Shown in pieces: positions 3,862 through 57,655 of a DNA stretch of 64,000 nucleotides; position 1 is the stretch's first letter, and every line of letters starts with the position of its first letter. The translations under genes and the position numbers were made by a program. The DNA is from Endozoicomonas sp. GU-1 (lineage in GTDB: Bacteria; Pseudomonadota; Gammaproteobacteria; Pseudomonadales; Endozoicomonadaceae). Where the stretch lies: contig NZ_CP114771.1 of assembly GCF_027366395.1 (NCBI RefSeq), positions 4,836,001 through 4,900,000 on the forward strand, read 5' to 3'. Below the pieces are notes generated by a model. That model did no database searches and was not told the origin of the DNA. It worked only from the letters and a program-made list of their open reading frames with translations.

Positions 3862-4605
3862 TCACGACCCTCCAGTTTTGGCTTGATTTTTTCTCATGGA
3901 CTTTCCCTTGAGTTCCAGCCGGTGAGCGTTATGGATCAACCGGTCCAGAATGGCATCAGCCAGCGTCGCGTCACCGATGCTGTCATGCCACTTCGATACC
4001 GGTAGCTGGCTGGTGACGATGGTAGAACTCTGGTTATGTCTGTCATCCATAATCTCCAGCAGGTCATTGCGCTGGCTCTGGGTCAGGGGCTCAAGCCCCC
4101 AGTCGTCCAGTATCAGCAGATTAACTTTCGCCAGTTGCTGCAGGAGCTTACTGTAGCTGCCATCACCGTGGGCAATGGTCATAGCTTCCAACAATCGGGA
4201 GGTGCGGTAGTAACGCACACTGTAGCCGCGCAGGCAGGCACTATGGCCAAAGGCACAACTCAGCCAGCTTTTGCCGGTACCACAGGGGCCGGTGATCAGC
4301 AGGTTCTGGTTTTTGCTTAGCCACTCACCCGGTATCAGTGAGGCCATCTGGGAACGGGTAATCCCCCGGGGCTGCTCATAATCAATGTCCTCCAGGGTGG
4401 CGGCCAGTTTGAAGCGGGCTGCTTTCAGTAACCGGGCCAGTCGTTTGTTGTTGCGGTCCGCGTCCTCCTGGTCAATAAGCAGGGCCAGCCGCTCTTCGAA
4501 GCTGAGCCCTTCATAGGTGCCGGGTTGTTCGCTCTGCAGGTTCAGGGCATCCGCCATGCCGCCCAGACGCAGGCTGCGAAGGCGAGTCAGGTTTTGATTA
4601 ATCAT
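3862..4605 (-). CDS. istB: IS21 transposition helper ATPase IstB
   Basis: DnaC-like AAA+ ATPase that assists the IstA transposase in target selection. Walker A is GPCGTGKSW and Walker B is NLLILDDWG; the N-terminal segment LRLGGMADAL is typical of IstB. I place the start at ATG 4605 (protein MINQNLTRLR) because GAGGAG sits 8 nt upstream, inside the end of istA; an upstream in-frame ATG at 4620 overlaps the istA stop and lacks such a site. The tight spacing suggests translational coupling to istA. Confidence 0.88.
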   Translation of the reverse strand: MINQNLTRLRSLRLGGMADALNLQSEQPGTYEGLSFEERLALLIDQEDADRNNKRLARLLKAARFKLAATLEDIDYEQPRGITRSQMASLIPGEWLSKNQNLLITGPCGTGKSWLSCAFGHSACLRGYSVRYYRTSRLLEAMTIAHGDGSYSKLLQQLAKVNLLILDDWGLEPLTQSQRNDLLEIMDDRHNQSSTIVTSQLPVSKWHDSIGDATLADAILDRLIHNAHRLELKGKSMRKNQAKTGGS

Positions 4606-4616
4606 GGTCTCGCTCC

Positions 4617-6170
4617 TCACTGGTAAAAGCTGGCGCCGCGAATGTTTTCATGGCTTCGGGTCACGCGAGCATCGTCGTTGGTTTCTGCCTTGTTCAGCGG
4701 GATTTTGTCTAATCCGGACTGGAGGATCGAACGGACATTAGCAACTCGCCGACCACCGGTGTTTCTGGCACGGTGGCAGGCCGCATTCAATCGGTCAGCG
4801 CCGTATGCCCGCTCCATGTTGAGCAGCCCGAGACAGGCACGGTAAGCCTGCTCCGGGTGCTCTTTGCTATCGAGCAGTTGCTGAGTAAACCACAGGACGT
4901 CGGGGCCCAGCTTTTTCGCCCAGTTCAGGAGTCGTCCCGGTGTCCACTGCTGCTGTTTCTGGTGGCGCTCTGGCATATGCTCTGTGCGGGTGGTAAAGCC
5001 GGTTCCCCATTTGCGGGGATGGCTGGCTACCGGCTTCCCCTTGTAGAAGATCTGCACCAGTTGCTGGCCTGCCCGGATTTCCACCTGCTCACGCACCAGC
5101 TGATGGGGTACTGAGTAGGAGTGGTTTCCATACTGCACGTGGTAGTCAATATTGACCCGGGCATACTTGAATTCGATGTATTCACATGCCTCCCGGGGTA
5201 AGGGCCTGAGCGCTGGTTGATCCAGCTGCTCATACAGCGTACGACGGCAACCGGGTTGCTGCTTGAAAGGTCGGTTGTTGAGGTCTTCCAGCAGGCGTCG
5301 TATTTCCTGGTTCAGCTCCGCCAGCGAGAAGAACCTGGTATGACGCAGGCGCATTAATATCCAGCGCTCAACCACCTGAACGCCGACCTCTACCTTCGCC
5401 TTGTCTTTTGGCTTGTAAGGCCGTGCAGGCATGATGGAGGTGCAAAAGTGTTCAGCCAGGTGCTGGTAACTCCGGTTGATCTGTGGCTCGTAGCGGCAGG
5501 CTTTGGATACTGCACTTCGCAGGTTATCCGGAACCAGCAACTGGGTCACGCCGCCAAAGAACTGAAATGCCCGGGCCTGGGAACAGAGAAAGTCTTGCAG
5601 GCCCTGAGTCCAGCTGGCTTCAGCATAGGTGTAACTGGATGCCCCCAGCACGGCAACAAAGATCTGTGCTGGCGCGGTTTCGCCGGTCTCACGGCTGACG
5701 ATGGGAACAGTCAGGCCCGCATAGTCAATAAACAGTTTTTCGCCGCCCCGGTGCTCCTGGCGCATGGAGCGTTTCTGCTTTTTGCGCCATTCATTGTAGC
5801 GGTGGCAGAACTGGGCATAGCTGTAATGGCTGTGGGGGTAGACGTCACAGTATTCCTCCCAGAGCCTCTGCTTGGTCATCCCCTTTTGCTTGAGGGAGCG
5901 GTGAATATCAATCCAGTCAGGATCAGTCAGCCCCTGATAGCGACGGTTAATGGCTTCAGGAGTGAGCTGGTTGATCAGTGACGTGTCGTCCATCTCATCT
6001 GGCAGTGGCCAGCTCAGGCCGGATTCACTGAACAGGTTCAGGTATTTGGTGATAACACCAGTGCTGATCCTGAGGCTGATTGAGATCTGTCGGATGGTTA
6101 ACCGGCACTCGAACCGGAGCCGTAAAATGTCCCTGATTTTACGCATTGGTAACCTCGTTTTCATTGCCAT
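4617..6170 (-). CDS. istA: IS21 transposase IstA
   Basis: A 517-residue DDE transposase. The N-terminal HTH (residues ~8-45, RKIRDILRLRF ... TIRQISISLRIS) binds the subterminal repeats. The RNase H-like core includes FIDYAGLTVPIV (first Asp), LLVPDNLRSAV (second Asp) and KAKVEVGVQVVERWI (catalytic Glu). The C-terminal part has the IstA segment with HSYSVPHQLV. The length is normal for the family. It is co-transcribed with istB and no internal lesion is visible. Confidence 0.88.
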   Translation of the reverse strand: MAMKTRLPMRKIRDILRLRFECRLTIRQISISLRISTGVITKYLNLFSESGLSWPLPDEMDDTSLINQLTPEAINRRYQGLTDPDWIDIHRSLKQKGMTKQRLWEEYCDVYPHSHYSYAQFCHRYNEWRKKQKRSMRQEHRGGEKLFIDYAGLTVPIVSRETGETAPAQIFVAVLGASSYTYAEASWTQGLQDFLCSQARAFQFFGGVTQLLVPDNLRSAVSKACRYEPQINRSYQHLAEHFCTSIMPARPYKPKDKAKVEVGVQVVERWILMRLRHTRFFSLAELNQEIRRLLEDLNNRPFKQQPGCRRTLYEQLDQPALRPLPREACEYIEFKYARVNIDYHVQYGNHSYSVPHQLVREQVEIRAGQQLVQIFYKGKPVASHPRKWGTGFTTRTEHMPERHQKQQQWTPGRLLNWAKKLGPDVLWFTQQLLDSKEHPEQAYRACLGLLNMERAYGADRLNAACHRARNTGGRRVANVRSILQSGLDKIPLNKAETNDDARVTRSHENIRGASFYQ

Positions 6171-50869: not shown

Positions 50870-51592
50870 ATGAATAAACCATTGGTCGTTATTACCGGAG
50901 CCAGCTCTGGTATTGGTGAAGCCGTTGCCAGGGCCATGAGTCAGCTTGGACATCCATTGTTATTACTGGCCAGAAGGGCCGAGCGCCTGGAGGCCCTGGA
51001 TCTGACTGACGCACTTTGCCGACGAGTGGATGTGACGGATCGTGATGCCCTGAAACTGGTTATCGAAGAAGCCGAGTCCCACTATGGACCTACAGACTGT
51101 CTTATCAACAATGCCGGGCTAATGCAGCTGGGGCGTGTCGATGAACAGGATCCTGCCGAGTGGGATACCATGGTTGATGTGAATATCAAAGGTGTTTTGA
51201 ATGGCATCCATGCCGTTGCCCGTCAGATGAAAGCCAGAAAAGGTGGAACCATCTTCAATATCAGCTCAGTGGCTGGTATCAAGGGCTTTCCAAATCACAT
51301 GGCCTACTGTGGTACCAAGTTTGCTGTGCATGGTTTGTCTGAAACCCTGAGAGAAGAACTGGCTGACGACAGTGTACGGGTGGTAACCATCGCACCGGGA
51401 GCGGTAGAAACTGAGCTGCTGAGCCATACCACATCCAGTGACATCAAGGAGGGCTATGAGCAGTGGAAGCACGGCATGGGCGGCGTTATCACGGCAGAGG
51501 ATATTGCTCGTTGTATTACCTTTGTGTATCAGCAGCCACAAAATGTCTGTATCCGTGAGCTGGTAGTTACGGCTACCCGACAAACGGCGTAG
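50870..51592 (+). CDS. Short-chain dehydrogenase/reductase
   Basis: 240 residues, preceded by AGGAG. Rossmann motif VVITGASSGIGEAVA, NNAG loop (CLINNAGLMQLG), catalytic Ser (NISSVAG) and Tyr-x3-Lys (YCGTK), and the PGAVETELLSH loop. NAD(P)-dependent oxidoreductase of the YdfG/clavaldehyde-like type; the substrate is unknown. Intact. Confidence 0.9.
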   Translation: MNKPLVVITGASSGIGEAVARAMSQLGHPLLLLARRAERLEALDLTDALCRRVDVTDRDALKLVIEEAESHYGPTDCLINNAGLMQLGRVDEQDPAEWDTMVDVNIKGVLNGIHAVARQMKARKGGTIFNISSVAGIKGFPNHMAYCGTKFAVHGLSETLREELADDSVRVVTIAPGAVETELLSHTTSSDIKEGYEQWKHGMGGVITAEDIARCITFVYQQPQNVCIRELVVTATRQTA

Positions 51593-51748: not shown

Positions 51749-51793
51749 CGTAGTTAACCCAAATGAAATCATATTTTCTGACTTAGTGGGCAG
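51749..51793. mobile_element. MITE family B end fragment
   Basis: About 45 bases matching the inverted-repeat end of 30531-30695 (GTAGTTAACC, AAATGAAATCATAT, CTGACTTAGTGGGCAG). It overlaps the last codons and stop of the BIR gene. Confidence 0.75.
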
Positions 51794-52868
51794 GTAATCG
51801 AAACTGTTCATTGTTGTACTGTTCTTGAAGTCTGCGGGCGATCTTAGCATCTTCACTCTCTTGTTCAGCCTTGATTCTTATTTGCCTTTGCTGATTTACT
51901 TGTTCAAAGAGTGCAATGCGCTCATTTTTCAACTGAACAATTAGCTTTTGCACTTCTTTTAATTCTTTTAATTCTTTTAATTGATCCTGGTATTCATTGT
52001 ATTCCTGCTCGTACCTTCTACAGGATTCAGCTATGGCCGCCTTGTTATGGTTCCGGGGATCAAGCAGGCTTAGAATACAGGAAGCGTGCAAAGTGCTATT
52101 TCCAGAGAGGTTTTCAGTATAATGCCAATGAATAAAGGCTTGTTCGACCTTGCGCATTTGTTCTGGAAGATCTTTAAGGTTTCTATTGTAAATCTGTTCA
52201 AGTTGTTGGTAAGGCCAGCTTAGTCTGAATTTTACAAGCGTATTGTAAGGATTCTCTTTTACAGGAGTGTGTTGATCGCAGTGCTGTTTTAATTGTTTTT
52301 CCACATCAAATGACTCTTTAATCGTTTTGATAAATGATTGACCCATTTCCCACTTCACGATCGCGCAGTCTGGCGACAGGCGAGTATGTTCAATCCATGG
52401 GAGATCATCAGGTTTCCAGTTGCCAACATGCATATCACATTTATCACAATAAACTGAGTCACTGTGTTTACTGCAGGAAAATCCCGCATCAGCCAATTCC
52501 TTCGGAGTATGATAGGGGAAGTTCTTCTCAAAGCCCTTGAAAGTGGCTGCTTTGGCCATCAGCATATCAATTGGTTGAGAAGGGCTTGGCGTGTTCTCGT
52601 GGGGAAGCCGGGTATAAACATGCCCGGAAGGTGCATGATGTGATTTACGGGTATGCAGATATCTTGGCTCAAACGGCGTGCCGGGAGGCGCGTGAATTAC
52701 CAGTAATCCCGGGACCGGTGCATAACATCGAAGACCACTAAATGAATTGCCCGCCAGGGGGTTGCGAGAGTGAACCGGTGTATGGCTCTCTTCCCCGGGC
52801 TCTGGCAGAAGAAGGTATGCACGCTGTGGGGCTCGAGAAACATTCGGGTTAAGCCGATGACATTCCAT
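51783..52868 (-). CDS. BIR-domain (IAP-like) protein with C-terminal coiled coil
   Basis: 361 residues. Residues ~106-175 form a BIR domain: KAATFKGFEKNFPYHTPKEL, ADAGFSCSKHSDSVYCDKC, then NWKPDDLPWIEHTRLSPDC. The zinc ligands Cys141-x2-Cys144-x16-His161-x6-Cys168 match the BIR spacing exactly. BIR domains of inhibitor-of-apoptosis proteins bind caspases or IAP-antagonists. The N-terminal ~100 residues are Pro/Ser-rich. Residues ~280-350 are a Glu/Lys/Gln-rich coiled coil with short DNA repeats, ending in DAKIARRLQEQYNNE, reminiscent of ubiquitin-associated helices. No RING is visible. Host-derived transfer and anti-apoptotic use are inference; apoptosis inhibitors have been described in the intranuclear relative Endonucleobacter. 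The last residues are supplied by a MITE-B fragment. Confidence 0.82.
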   Translation of the reverse strand: MECHRLNPNVSRAPQRAYLLLPEPGEESHTPVHSRNPLAGNSFSGLRCYAPVPGLLVIHAPPGTPFEPRYLHTRKSHHAPSGHVYTRLPHENTPSPSQPIDMLMAKAATFKGFEKNFPYHTPKELADAGFSCSKHSDSVYCDKCDMHVGNWKPDDLPWIEHTRLSPDCAIVKWEMGQSFIKTIKESFDVEKQLKQHCDQHTPVKENPYNTLVKFRLSWPYQQLEQIYNRNLKDLPEQMRKVEQAFIHWHYTENLSGNSTLHASCILSLLDPRNHNKAAIAESCRRYEQEYNEYQDQLKELKELKEVQKLIVQLKNERIALFEQVNQQRQIRIKAEQESEDAKIARRLQEQYNNEQFRLPAH

Positions 52869-52941: not shown

Positions 52942-53313
52942 TCATTCAATTGCTCCCGGCGTTGGGGGCACCGGCGCAGACCTGCGTTCATCAATAAGGT
53001 GTTGAATGGTCAGAATGGGATGTTTAAGTAGCAGGCGAGGGCCAGCCCATTTCATCACTTCACGAATTTGTCGACGTTGTTCCGGTTTGTAGCAATGGAC
53101 CTGGCAGTTAGCGCAGGTGGGTTTTTCGACACCATAAATACAGCGTTCAAGCCGTCGCTTGCTGAAAGCCAGCAGAGAGAGGCATTCATTGCACAGGGAA
53201 GGGTGCTGGTGGTGGTGGTGGTGGCAGTAAAGCTCAATCATGCGGGTAACGGTAAAATATTCACGGGTCAGCCTGGGGTGATCTTTCAGACGGCCTTTGA
53301 GAGCGAGGGGCAT
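52942..53313 (-). CDS. Nitrous-oxide-stimulated-promoter family protein
   Basis: 123 residues. Family pattern: MIELYCHHHHHQHPSLCNEC, CIYGVEKPTCANCQVHCYKP, REVMKWAGPRLLLKHPIL. The conserved Cys residues (two CxxC pairs plus His) suggest metal binding. Function unknown. Stands alone. Confidence 0.75.
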   Translation of the reverse strand: MPLALKGRLKDHPRLTREYFTVTRMIELYCHHHHHQHPSLCNECLSLLAFSKRRLERCIYGVEKPTCANCQVHCYKPEQRRQIREVMKWAGPRLLLKHPILTIQHLIDERRSAPVPPTPGAIE

Positions 53314-53555: not shown

Positions 53556-55011
53556 ATGCAAACCACTATCAGCAGCTGTCACAGTACCCCTTCTACACCA
53601 GAGCCTCAGGCTGCTGGTCAGTCATTACCAGAGAACAGTTCTGTTAACCCCGGTGCTGTAAAGGAGACTGTTGCACGATATATCATTGAACATCAAAAAA
53701 TACCCTTGTCCTTAAGAACTGTATTAAAACTGACAAACGAAGCCTGCCTCTCGCTGCTCAAAAAAATTCCTTCAGGTGGAACAGAGTCAGAAAAAAAAGA
53801 AGCAATTCATCGTATGGTTGAAGAAATGATCTATCCCGACCTGCCCGGTGTTAAGCTTCAGGAAATTGATGATTTATTTCAGCGCCCCCCCCCTGGTAGC
53901 AAAGAAGCTTGAATGTAAAGATATCCATACCAGTGAGTTTATCCATCGACGGGAAGTATCGGAGGAAAGCAATGAATCACTAACCTGTGTTAAATTGGGG
54001 TACCTGAGTTTTAATGTTTATGACGAAATTGACAGCATAAAATCCCGTATAAAGGTGATCAACAAGGTTACTCAATGGGTGTGCGACTATCTGCAAAAAC
54101 TGCCGGACAGTCGGGTAACTTTTATATCCATGGGGTCTGGAGCATTGTTGATGGAGCAGCTGATTCACCAGCAAATCACCAAGAGCGGGGTATCAGATAA
54201 AAAAATTGCCTGGCGTTGTATAGATATTGATTATGTCGAGGATTCCTCTCGTTCCTCGGGGTCTTCACCGAGCCTTAAAGATGTCAGAAAGCAGTTTATA
54301 GAGGGAAAAAATGTCCGGTTTTTTACTACAGCAACTACCTACCTGAACAAAAAGTTAAATGGTCAGCAACTCCGGACCACAGATAGAGAAAATAGTGCGA
54401 TTGTCATTTTAGAATTTAACCCGCCCACACCCACTCATGGCAACAGTCAAGAAACACTTGGTAATATTGGTGGATATATTGTGTCAGGCGCACCCTGTGA
54501 GATTACCAGGGCAAATTCTGTTTTCTTATTAATTGGAGTAGAAGGTCAACAATCAGATCTTGAAGAGTTCGTTGGTGAACTTGATTCTTCAATATCATGG
54601 ATGAGTTCATCAACGCAGTTTATTAAAGTTTCAATAAATGTCTCAGGTGAGCCGGAGGTTTACCTTTCAGAATTCTATAAAAAGAATTGTGAAGCACTCG
54701 GACTAGAGTTCAAAAGCATTGTGTTATCTCATTTGAATCAACAAAAGGCTATCGGTTCCCCTATCATCAGGGCTGAAAAGGCACTCAGTGAAGTAAAAAA
54801 ATTCATTCTCCAGGCTGGCTGGTCTGCACAGGTGTTTGCATATTCAGAATACAGTGACAGCATTGATCAACTCACCAGGCACTTTTACAGCGGGCAACAA
54901 GACAGTATTGATCGGTCTCCCGGGGCGTTGTTCAAACTGCAACACAAACAGATAACCATCACCGATAGTGCAGATTTTGCCGCTTTGAGCAGCAGTCAAA
55001 GTGCCGTATAG
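53556..55011 (+). pseudogene. Unknown ~485-residue protein split at a poly-C tract
   Basis: The first frame (53556-53912) starts with a Ser/Thr/Pro-rich N terminus and ends right after a run of nine C (53885-53893). The second frame continues to 55011. Eight or eleven C would join them. The body has a Rossmann-like run (RVTFISMGSGALLMEQLI, KIAWRCIDIDY, AIVILEFNP), which could be a degenerate methyltransferase fold, but no family is assigned. No signal peptide. The N-terminal style matches the accessory proteins of the window. A hairpin terminator follows. Confidence 0.5.
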
Positions 55012-55699: not shown

Positions 55700-56560
55700 A
55701 TGCACGCTACCTTTGGATCGTCATCCAGCTTGCCTCATGCGCAAATGGTTGCTATCAAAAATGACGCAGCTTCCCAAACCGAATGTTCTCCTCAGGTGTC
55801 AATGACTAATGGCAGGGTTGTCAACTGCGCACACCCCAGCCAGTCGGTATGCCCGGATAAGATCATTAGTAATACAGATAAATCCCTTTCTGGTTACGGA
55901 GTACAGCTTGTCAATGAGACCTTACAGGCCGGTCTGCAGGGCGGCAATAAGCTGATACGCAATGTCGCCGGTTTCGCCTTTCGGCAAATGATGGAATCAC
56001 TGCAATTCTCCCCGGACATAAAAAAACAGTGTCTGCTGTTGCTGGGGGCAATGCCTGCTCTGGCGGGTACCCAGCCGATTGATACCTCACTATCCTTCAC
56101 CGATCCAACAAACCTGACCACAACTTCTGAACCCATCCCTTTTGACAAGAGCGAGGGGCCAGCTCTGTTGTTCTTGATCGTTGGCATCCCCGCCCTTGTA
56201 GGCCTTTGTGCCGCTTACGCATACTGTTCCGACTTCCATAATGAGTATCAGCGATTCAAGGATCAAAACCCTCATGCATCACGCCGTCAACTCATTAAAG
56301 CAGCTTTCGATAACCCAAATGATCCCGAAAGAAATCGGTATTTAACCTATGAGGAAAAGTATCGTCTGCCAGTTCCTCCTGCTCAAAGAGCCCCGGCGTC
56401 GACAGCGCCAACAACTTGTGAGCAGGCAACACAAACAGCCTGCGAGCAGGGAATACAAACAGATCCAGTGATTAATGACTCACCACTGCAAGAGATACAA
56501 CCACCAACCTATGCAGAAGCAACAGCTAACCTTGAAAATCCCAAGGAACCAGTTACATGA
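55700..56560 (+). CDS. Membrane protein with TQT and PPxY tail motifs (paralogue 1)
   Basis: 286 residues, ATG 55700 after AAAGGAATG. The N terminus is Ser-rich with ASQTEC at ~24-29. Two hydrophobic segments: CLLLLGAMPALAG (~111-123) and ALLFLIVGIPALVGLCAAYA (~155-174). The hydrophilic C-terminal tail carries TQT (244-246), GIQTD (251-255) and PPTY (268-271, in QPPTYAEA). TQT/IQTD resemble dynein light chain LC8 sites; PPxY is the ligand of WW domains such as those of NEDD4-type ubiquitin ligases. No catalytic domain. A membrane-anchored scaffold displaying host-type peptide motifs is inferred. Tandem paralogue follows. Confidence 0.6.
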   Translation: MHATFGSSSSLPHAQMVAIKNDAASQTECSPQVSMTNGRVVNCAHPSQSVCPDKIISNTDKSLSGYGVQLVNETLQAGLQGGNKLIRNVAGFAFRQMMESLQFSPDIKKQCLLLLGAMPALAGTQPIDTSLSFTDPTNLTTTSEPIPFDKSEGPALLFLIVGIPALVGLCAAYAYCSDFHNEYQRFKDQNPHASRRQLIKAAFDNPNDPERNRYLTYEEKYRLPVPPAQRAPASTAPTTCEQATQTACEQGIQTDPVINDSPLQEIQPPTYAEATANLENPKEPVT

Positions 56561-56673
56561 CTGTTTTGCTTTTGAGGCAACCCTCAAGTACTTGAAATAA
56601 TCCTTCTGAGGCATCTTCCAGGAACATTCTTATTGATGTCCCCGCTGTTGAAGACGGTATCAATCATCTTGAT

Positions 56674-56699
56674 TGAACTTAATTGCCGACTGATGGTCT
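56674..56699 (+). promoter_or_regulatory. Conserved block upstream of tandem membrane-protein gene 2
   Basis: Counterpart of 55641-55666 (two differences), about 35 nt before the second paralogue's ATG. Confidence 0.5.
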
Positions 56700-56734
56700 G
56701 CAATAACAGATTTCTTGGAAAGGAAAATACTAAA

Positions 56735-57655
56735 ATGCATGCTTCTCTTGAATCGTCATCAGCCCTGCCCTATGCGCAAATGGTTGGTAAAAAAGATGCA
56801 GTTTCTCAAACCGACTGTTGTCGCCAAGTGACAACGACAAACGGCAGGGCTGTCAGCTGCCCACAGCCCAGCCCGTCGGACTGCCACCTGGATTCGGATA
56901 ACAGTATCAGGCCAGATAAATCCCTGTCTGATTACGGTGTACATCTTGCCAGAGAGGCCTTACAGGCTGGTTTGCATGGCAGCAATAAGTTGCTAGGCAG
57001 TGTTGCCGGTTTCGCCCTTCAGCATTTGATGAAATCAGGGCAGTTCCCTGGCGTATTTCCGGACATAAAACAGAGCCTGATGTTTTTGGCGGCAATGCCT
57101 GCTCTTGCGGGCGCATACCCTTTGAGTGGCAGACCGGCATACCCTGATGGATCGCCAGGCGGCAGCACGACCTACAGTAGAGGGCCAAACGCAGGTGCCT
57201 CATATACTCCATCCTTCACATCTTCAACGACACACCTGAACACGACTTCTGAACCTGCCTCTTCGATCAACTATCTTGATATGCCGCTTGCCCTGGGTTC
57301 ATTTGTCGTTCTGGGGGGAGGGTTGTACGGTTTTGTTTATTGCGCTCACCTCCGTGAAATCTATAAGCGAATCAAGTATGACTACCCTGAAGCATCATGC
57401 TGCCAGGTTATTAAAGCAGTGTTTAAATACCCAAATTATAATCACACAGATAACTATCCCTTACCGAGTCATGTTATTCGACGGCCAGCTCCCCCCGCTC
57501 AAGCAGCCCCTGTGCCAGCAGAGCCAACTACTCGTGAACAGGGGACACAAACAGCCCGCGATCAGGGAACACAAACGGAACCCGTGATTGATGAACCAGC
57601 ACCACAAGGGCAACCACCAACCTATGCAGAAGCAATAACTTTTTCGGTTAGATAA
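56735..57655 (+). CDS. Membrane protein with TQT and PPxY tail motifs (paralogue 2)
   Basis: 306 residues from ATG 56735 (GGAAAGGAAAA upstream; the frame is open to 56633). Aligns with paralogue 1 along its length (SSALPYAQMV, DYGVHLAREALQAGLHGSNK, LFLAAMPALAG-like and LALGSFVVLGGGLYGFVYCA membrane segments), with an added Gly/Ser/Thr stretch before the second span. Motifs: VSQTD (~23-27), GTQT (270-273), GTQTE (278-282) and PPTY (294-297). Its TQTE and SQTD sites are near-ideal for the LC8 pattern. The stop codon lies inside the 3' end of tag on the other strand (34-bp overlap). Confidence 0.6.
   Translation: MHASLESSSALPYAQMVGKKDAVSQTDCCRQVTTTNGRAVSCPQPSPSDCHLDSDNSIRPDKSLSDYGVHLAREALQAGLHGSNKLLGSVAGFALQHLMKSGQFPGVFPDIKQSLMFLAAMPALAGAYPLSGRPAYPDGSPGGSTTYSRGPNAGASYTPSFTSSTTHLNTTSEPASSINYLDMPLALGSFVVLGGGLYGFVYCAHLREIYKRIKYDYPEASCCQVIKAVFKYPNYNHTDNYPLPSHVIRRPAPPAQAAPVPAEPTTREQGTQTARDQGTQTEPVIDEPAPQGQPPTYAEAITFSVR

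What the first reader, a model, noticed from the sequence alone, without database searches (positions are those of the whole stretch)
51783..52868. Bacterial BIR (inhibitor-of-apoptosis) domain with exact zinc-ligand spacing
C-x2-C-x16-H-x6-C with the surrounding AGF and W-x-x-x-D-x-x-W-x-EH residues is a textbook BIR, rare in bacteria. It is joined to a coiled coil rather than the eukaryotic RING. An anti-apoptotic effector is a strong possibility in an intracellular symbiont; acquisition from a host is inference.
Basis: partly seen in the sequence, partly recalled or inferred. Interest (0 to 1): 0.85.

Follow-up and report, generated by a model that had tools for sequence, protein, structure and literature searches.

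The report
RING-less bacterial relative of apoptosis inhibitors
A bacterium related to coral symbionts carries a gene with an animal-type cell-death-inhibitor domain (BIR) but no ubiquitin-ligase RING, while a relative of the gene in a sister bacterium has one; such proteins are already known in this bacterial family, and what this one does is untested.

Summary
The 361-aa ORF at 51783-52868(-) has a genuine BIR (Pfam 58.6 bits, cut-off 22.9); its four zinc ligands are kept in 4 of 4 homologues. BIR occurs in 16 of 37 genomes of this family, in none of 368 other genomes of a class sample or 397 of a phylum sample. Three relatives in the same genus (E. acroporae Acr-14 and YOMI1 among them) hold it beside ygbA, two of them visibly in the same ygbA-SDR slot. 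New here: a fourth (G005) has the same protein followed by a cIAP-type RING, elsewhere in its genome. Simplest reading: a BIR-RING inhibitor that lost its RING. Protein change is some tenfold faster than in SDR, RnfA and RnfB, yet the frame stays open. Delivery and apoptosis inhibition are untested; "coiled coil" is only a predicted long helix; structure prediction was inconclusive. IAP-domain genes of YOMI1 and Acr-14 were published in 2022, and bacterial BIR-RING proteins in 2024, so this is a variant of a known kind.

The parts
51783..52868 (-). 361-aa BIR protein gene, ATG start; no RING
   Evidence: the start Met aligns in the 5 sequences compared, the window's included
52566..52868 (-). 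residues 1-101: N-terminal extension, no helix or strand in the low-confidence model; dN/dS 0.70-1.29 among the 4 RING-less copies (6 pairs)
52356..52547 (-). BIR domain, residues 108-171; ligands C141 C144 H161 C168
   Evidence: (G000 4888356-4888547)
52275..52352 (-). residues 173-198: region after the BIR; its start (to residue 184) aligns with the stretch after BIR3 of cIAP2 (MGQSFIK against KGQEFIR)
   Evidence: alignment; helix in the low-confidence model
51786..52352 (-). residues 173-361: C-terminal region, found in 5 of 37 family genomes
52942..53313 (-). ygbA (PF11756), ending 73 nt upstream on the same strand; possible co-transcription
50870..51592 (+). short-chain dehydrogenase (SDR), downstream flank, convergent

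Best explanation
It is a bacterial inhibitor-of-apoptosis relative that has lost its RING. The BIR is nearest to those of cIAP and XIAP among solved structures. The protein is probably delivered into host cells (type III secretion, inferred), where the BIR would bind IAP-binding-motif ligands (caspases or their IAP antagonists) without ubiquitinating them, acting as a stoichiometric blocker or decoy that delays death of the colonised cell. Shown: BIR, ligands, no RING, copies at one place in related genomes, a RING-bearing homologue, fast protein evolution. Inferred: RING loss rather than gain, delivery, ligand, anti-apoptotic effect, animal origin.
For: Pfam and PDB matches. G005 homologue, 52% identical over residues 71-360, then RING PF13920 35.3 bits, cut-off 27, best PDB match cIAP2 RING 4.2e-10; BIR plus RING is the usual IAP layout (recalled), so loss is the simpler change. 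W151 and the acid at W+4 (D155) are as in cIAP2 BIR3. The frame is open in 4 of 4 RING-less copies, the window's included. Export gene hrcV 944 bits, cut-off 692. dN/dS 0.56-0.94 over 6 pairs against 0.06-0.09 (SDR) and at most 0.03 (RnfA, RnfB), but 0.21-0.44 for ORF 53556.
Against: No test of secretion, expression, zinc, ligand or apoptosis. Against cIAP2 BIR3, GG is M146-H147 and the W three residues after the zinc His is L164, so motif binding may be altered. dN/dS near 1 also fits relaxed constraint. AF2 was poor (mean pLDDT 45.1 and 44.3), and the domain-only model found no BIR among its 50 Foldseek matches. No RING remnant was found downstream.
Confidence: 0.45

Rival explanations
1. 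A decaying relic: after losing the RING the gene is under weak constraint and will be lost.
For: dN/dS 0.56-0.94, upper bootstrap limit above 1 in 4 of 6 pairs; N-terminal region 0.70-1.29.
Against: Frame open in 4 of 4 RING-less copies, the window's included; ligands kept in 4 of 4 homologues; BIR dN/dS 0.26-0.53 against G005, 4 pairs; upper limit below 1 in 2 of 6 pairs.
Confidence: 0.2
2. A BIR that acts on host immune signalling (TRAF or NF-kappaB type) rather than on caspases, or as a pure binding scaffold.
For: Some groove positions differ from cIAP2 BIR3; the C-terminal region was found in only 5 of 37 family genomes; cIAPs also act in immune signalling (start of the abstract of PMC6281012, seen in the listing).
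Against: No TRAF-binding feature was tested; the Trp and acid remain.
Confidence: 0.2
3. The G005 protein gained its RING by fusion, and the RING-less form is older.
For: The two forms lie at different places; no RING remnant behind the RING-less gene.
Against: BIR plus cIAP-type RING is the standard animal layout (recalled); a chance re-pairing is less simple.
Confidence: 0.15
4. A survivin (BIRC5) homologue taken from the coral, as one BIR plus a helix suggests and as PMC9743535 calls an inserted gene.
For: One BIR plus a C-terminal helix; the published label; survivin matches at 31.9 bits, about level with the best single BIR of NAIP (31.0 bits).
Against: Survivin scores below cIAP2 and XIAP BIRs (42.3 and 41.4 bits); a homologue carries a cIAP-type RING. 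The coral gene itself was not available. (Odds raised from 0.08 after the NAIP score was recognised as a sum over three BIRs.)
Confidence: 0.1

Closest known systems
Endozoicomonas IAP-domain genes of strains YOMI1 and Acr-14 (PMC9743535, 2022; section 19 and passages read)
   Same: Orthologues of this gene lie in both strains; the paper's Fig. 4B legend shows IAP-domain genes inserted in these two genomes.
   Different: Figure and supplement were not seen; the two genomes have 3 and 4 BIR matches, so identity with the published gene is likely, not proven. The parts read mention no RING-bearing homologue and no ygbA slot.
Bacterial IAPs of Ca. Endonucleobacter, Endozoicomonas and Kistimonas (PMC11521996, 2024; section 9 and passages read)
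   Same: Animal-type BIR in the same bacterial family.
   Different: That paper counts only BIR plus RING as IAP; this protein lacks the RING. The seven IAPs of Ca. E. childressi had Sec signal peptides; none was tested for here.
Animal cIAP1/cIAP2 and XIAP
   Same: BIR match, for cIAP2 including the stretch after the BIR; the G005 RING is closest to cIAP2.
   Different: One BIR, no RING; N- and C-terminal regions without a Pfam match over cut-off.
Survivin (BIRC5)
   Same: One BIR followed by a helix (survivin layout recalled).
   Different: Lower sequence score than cIAP2 and XIAP.

Membership tests
BIR domain (PF00653) | Score over the curated cut-off and CCHC zinc ligands | tested here: met
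   58.6 bits against 22.9; ligands in the window protein and 4 of 4 homologues
BIR domain (PF00653) | BIR fold in a predicted structure | tested here: inconclusive
   mean pLDDT 45.1 and 44.3; full-length model: the 50 listed of 166 matches are IAP BIR chains by title, best E 0.023; domain-only model: none of 50
IAP in the sense of PMC11521996 | BIR plus RING | tested here: not met
   no RING over cut-off in the ORF, one weak Baculo_RING match under it; no RING pattern; no remnant downstream. Met by the G005 homologue
IAP (functional sense) | Binds caspases or IAP-binding motifs, blocks apoptosis | not testable with these tools
   groove Trp and acid kept, other positions changed; groove roles recalled
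Survivin / BIRC5 | Closest to survivin among solved BIRs | tested here: not met
   31.9 bits against 42.3 (cIAP2) and 41.4 (XIAP); cnidarian survivins not available
Type III secreted effector | Export machinery in the genome (one component searched) | tested here: met
   TIGR01399 hrcV 944 bits, over cut-off
Type III secreted effector | Export signal and translocation | not tested
   no signal predictor on hand
Coiled-coil protein | Heptad pattern in 276-355 | tested here: not met
   1777 of 2000 shuffles as good; crude test that allows no stutter

The most novel reading that the evidence does not exclude
In this Endozoicomonas lineage, animal-type BIR modules are freed from the RING and reused as targeting parts on new bodies: here a helical body (a non-degrading decoy), and in the three other BIR genes of the same genome a roughly 300-residue domain with a conserved C-x-D-H-T motif that may be a new enzyme in place of the RING.
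Probability: 0.3. Interest if true: 0.7.

Novelty: new variant of a known kind. Interest (0 to 1): 0.5.

Why it matters
Bacterial IAPs are a recent finding. A pair of homologues, one with and one without the RING, in bacteria of one genus makes it possible to ask directly whether a symbiont's BIR works by degrading its target or merely by occupying it, and how animal immune parts are rebuilt after transfer. The authors of PMC9743535 speculate (passage) that such genes affect host innate immunity and stress tolerance in corals; a wider link to bleaching is recalled.

Tried and rejected
Idea that the C-terminal domain of the three other BIR proteins is an IpaH-type (NEL) ubiquitin ligase: it came from resemblance by eye. 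Pfam gave no NEL match at E up to 5 for these three and one relative (HMMER's filters drop most weak matches). hmmsearch in both directions gave best E 0.16 and 0.17, and hhalign at most 0.2% probability (11 of 16 NEL loci used, those that passed a pattern filter). A PDB profile search gave one match, E 0.89, not NEL. Not supported. True NEL: one match in this genome, matches in 12 of 32 genomes searched.

NO-controlled expression through an NsrR site before ygbA: best match upstream in the window 12 of 22 positions, up to 14 in relatives (consensus recalled); 12 is reached at 297 places and 14 at 17 places in the window. Rejected. Promoter- and terminator-like sites around the gene are no more than in shuffles (4 against 3.3, 2 against 2.9).

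RING remnant behind the stop: best tblastn E 0.21 in about 1 kb. Decayed copy in the G008 slot: none credible, best tblastn E 0.08; a 415-aa ORF, by eye an FAD oxidase, sits there.

Phage, plasmid or viral carriage: no tblastn match in the phage or plasmid collections; in IMG/VR 4 and 91 stretches matched patterns, none confirmed.

BIR tree of 40 domains: 20 of 37 inner branches open. The window's BIR falls with G010, G004, G005 and a long-branch row from G016 (80/100, drawn open). Only six animal BIRs (cIAP2, five of NAIP), so no donor test. The row filter dropped domains without a W, without GF in the 16 residues upstream (Acr-14's row among them), and repeats; the G005 row was kept by hand.

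Proteins of genome-search loci were not sent to structure prediction, because its stated rule names other sources; so the C-x-D domain was not folded.

An error of mine found on checking: NAIP's first place is a sum over three BIRs; its best single BIR (31.0 bits) is below cIAP2 and XIAP. The text is corrected.

Full report
Observation. The ORF at 51783-52868 on the minus strand is 361 aa long and starts with ATG. Pfam finds BIR (PF00653) at E 8.9e-16, 58.6 bits (cut-off 22.9). Two families match under their cut-offs: Baculo_RING (15.4 of 26.7 bits) and DUF6353 (13.6 of 25). The 60 PDB sequences shown, of 82 at E up to 1, are IAP or BIR proteins by name. With the domain alone, cIAP2 scores 42.3 bits, XIAP 41.4, survivin 31.9; NAIP's 60.7 is a sum over three BIRs, its best single one 31.0. 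This is not chance.

How rare. Genome G000 (6.09 Mb, one contig) has four BIR places; this one scores best. In the family held, 16 of 37 genomes have a BIR match (an earlier search of 56 relatives gave 15 of 56). In an even sample of the class only G000 had one, of 369; of the phylum only G000, of 398. So BIR looks like a speciality of this family in what was sampled.

Relatives and place. Full-length homologues lie in records titled Salinisphaera sp. G21_0, E. acroporae Acr-14 and Endozoicomonas sp. YOMI1, 86, 84 and 68% identical. In G010 and G009 the order ygbA, BIR, SDR, rnfA, rnfB is that of the window. In G004 ygbA and BIR are seen and the contig then ends; its ygbA matches in two frames. 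G008 has ygbA and SDR with another ORF between them and no BIR copy. G011 and G003 have ygbA near rnfA with neither SDR nor BIR matched in the 9-kb stretches taken; G007's stretch matched ygbA only. The slot varies between close relatives.

The RING-bearing homologue. G005 holds a 423-aa ORF (L094:879-2150) that matches residues 71-360 at 52%, with the same C-terminal region, then a RING (PF13920, 35.3 bits, cut-off 27) whose best PDB matches are cIAP2, cIAP1 and XIAP RINGs (4.2e-10 and up). By eye its neighbours are a transposase-like ORF and ratA/rnfH-like ORFs, not ygbA. The C-terminal region was found in 5 of 37 family genomes: the four RING-less ones and G005. Since BIR with RING is the normal animal layout (recalled), loss of the RING in the ygbA-slot lineage is the simplest history, but gain in G005 is not excluded. 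No RING remnant was found behind the RING-less genes; in YOMI1 only about 50 bases follow the stop before the contig ends.

What kind of BIR. The alignment with cIAP2 BIR3 runs past the last zinc ligand into the following stretch, to residue 184. The Trp and the acid four residues on are kept; GG (here M146-H147) and the Trp three after the zinc His (here L164) are not. That these positions form the peptide groove is recalled. A domain tree (40 rows, 79 columns) leaves most forks open; it places this BIR apart from the other three BIRs of its genome, on a fork of 80/100 support that is drawn open.

Selection. Between the four RING-less copies whole-gene dN/dS is 0.56-0.94 (6 pairs; bootstrap upper limit below 1 in 2). 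SDR has 0.06-0.09 (3 pairs), RnfA and RnfB 0.00-0.03 (6 pairs), ORF 53556 0.21-0.44 (3 pairs), DUF2288 0.40 (1 pair, limits 0.10-1.40). YgbA was not scored, since two rows held a stop at the coordinates given, and one DUF2288 row was dropped for the same cause. Against G005 the BIR itself is at 0.26-0.53 (4 pairs). Frames stay open. This fits a rapidly changing, still used protein, or weak constraint.

Structure. AF2 on the four-row alignment gave mean pLDDT 45.1, with two helices, three strands and a helix in the BIR and long helices behind it. The 50 listed of 166 Foldseek matches of that model are IAP BIR chains by title, but with E 0.023 or worse and low TM-scores, and Foldseek uses the letters too. 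The domain-only model (one sequence, pLDDT 44.3) found no BIR among its 50 matches. The fold is thus supported by sequence, not by an independent model.

Function. A non-flagellar type III export gene is present; no signal was tested. Best account: a delivered BIR that occupies IAP-motif ligands without ubiquitinating them. All steps after 'BIR present, RING absent' are inference.

Against what is known. PMC9743535 (section 19 and passages) reports IAP-domain genes in YOMI1 and Acr-14, shown inserted, and uses the name survivin for an inserted gene; the figure was not seen. PMC11521996 (section 9 and passages) reports BIR plus RING proteins in Ca. [quoted passage not shown] The passages seen of PMC12491435 and PMC13286007 say nothing of this gene. 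A statement of RING loss or of the ygbA slot was not seen in those parts or in the listings.

The other BIR genes. L036 (689 aa) and two tandem genes in L037 (707 aa each) join a BIR to about 300 residues; D-C-x-D-H-T and E-S-T-E are invariant in the 10 rows aligned, not in all further relatives (L013 has ETTE, L074 CQDKT). The domain matched in 6 of 32 genomes searched, in one case (L074) by eye without a BIR. Its function is open.

Noticed in passing
L036:1146-3215(-); L037:1600-3723(-), 3957-6080(-): Three other BIR proteins of the same genome carry a ~300-aa domain with DCxDHT and ESTE motifs, invariant in 10 of 10 aligned rows; no Pfam or PDB relative found. Resembles an IpaH-type ligase by eye only; profile tests negative.
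   Followed up: partly
55700-56560(+) and 56633-57655(+): Two related proteins whose tails hold PPTYAEA (PPxY type, WW-domain ligand, recalled) and GIQTD or GTQTE (dynein light chain LC8-like, recalled); PPTY is also in the counterparts in L044, L045 and L046.
   Followed up: partly
53556-55011(+): Two overlapping ORFs in different frames match what lies in one frame in L044, L045 and L046: this copy looks frameshifted, or it is a sequencing error.
   Followed up: no
L046:11103-11464: ygbA of G004 (YOMI1) matches in two different frames.
   Followed up: no
L102:6172-6489 (G016): In another genus of the family an ORF with a BIR match and a RING-like pattern (L015, G016:C211:5366) lies about 1.7 kb from ygbA, on the opposite strand; perhaps coincidence.
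   Followed up: no
G026 (same family): 28 BIR matches in one 3.7-Mb genome, some in proteins with many BIRs.
   Followed up: no
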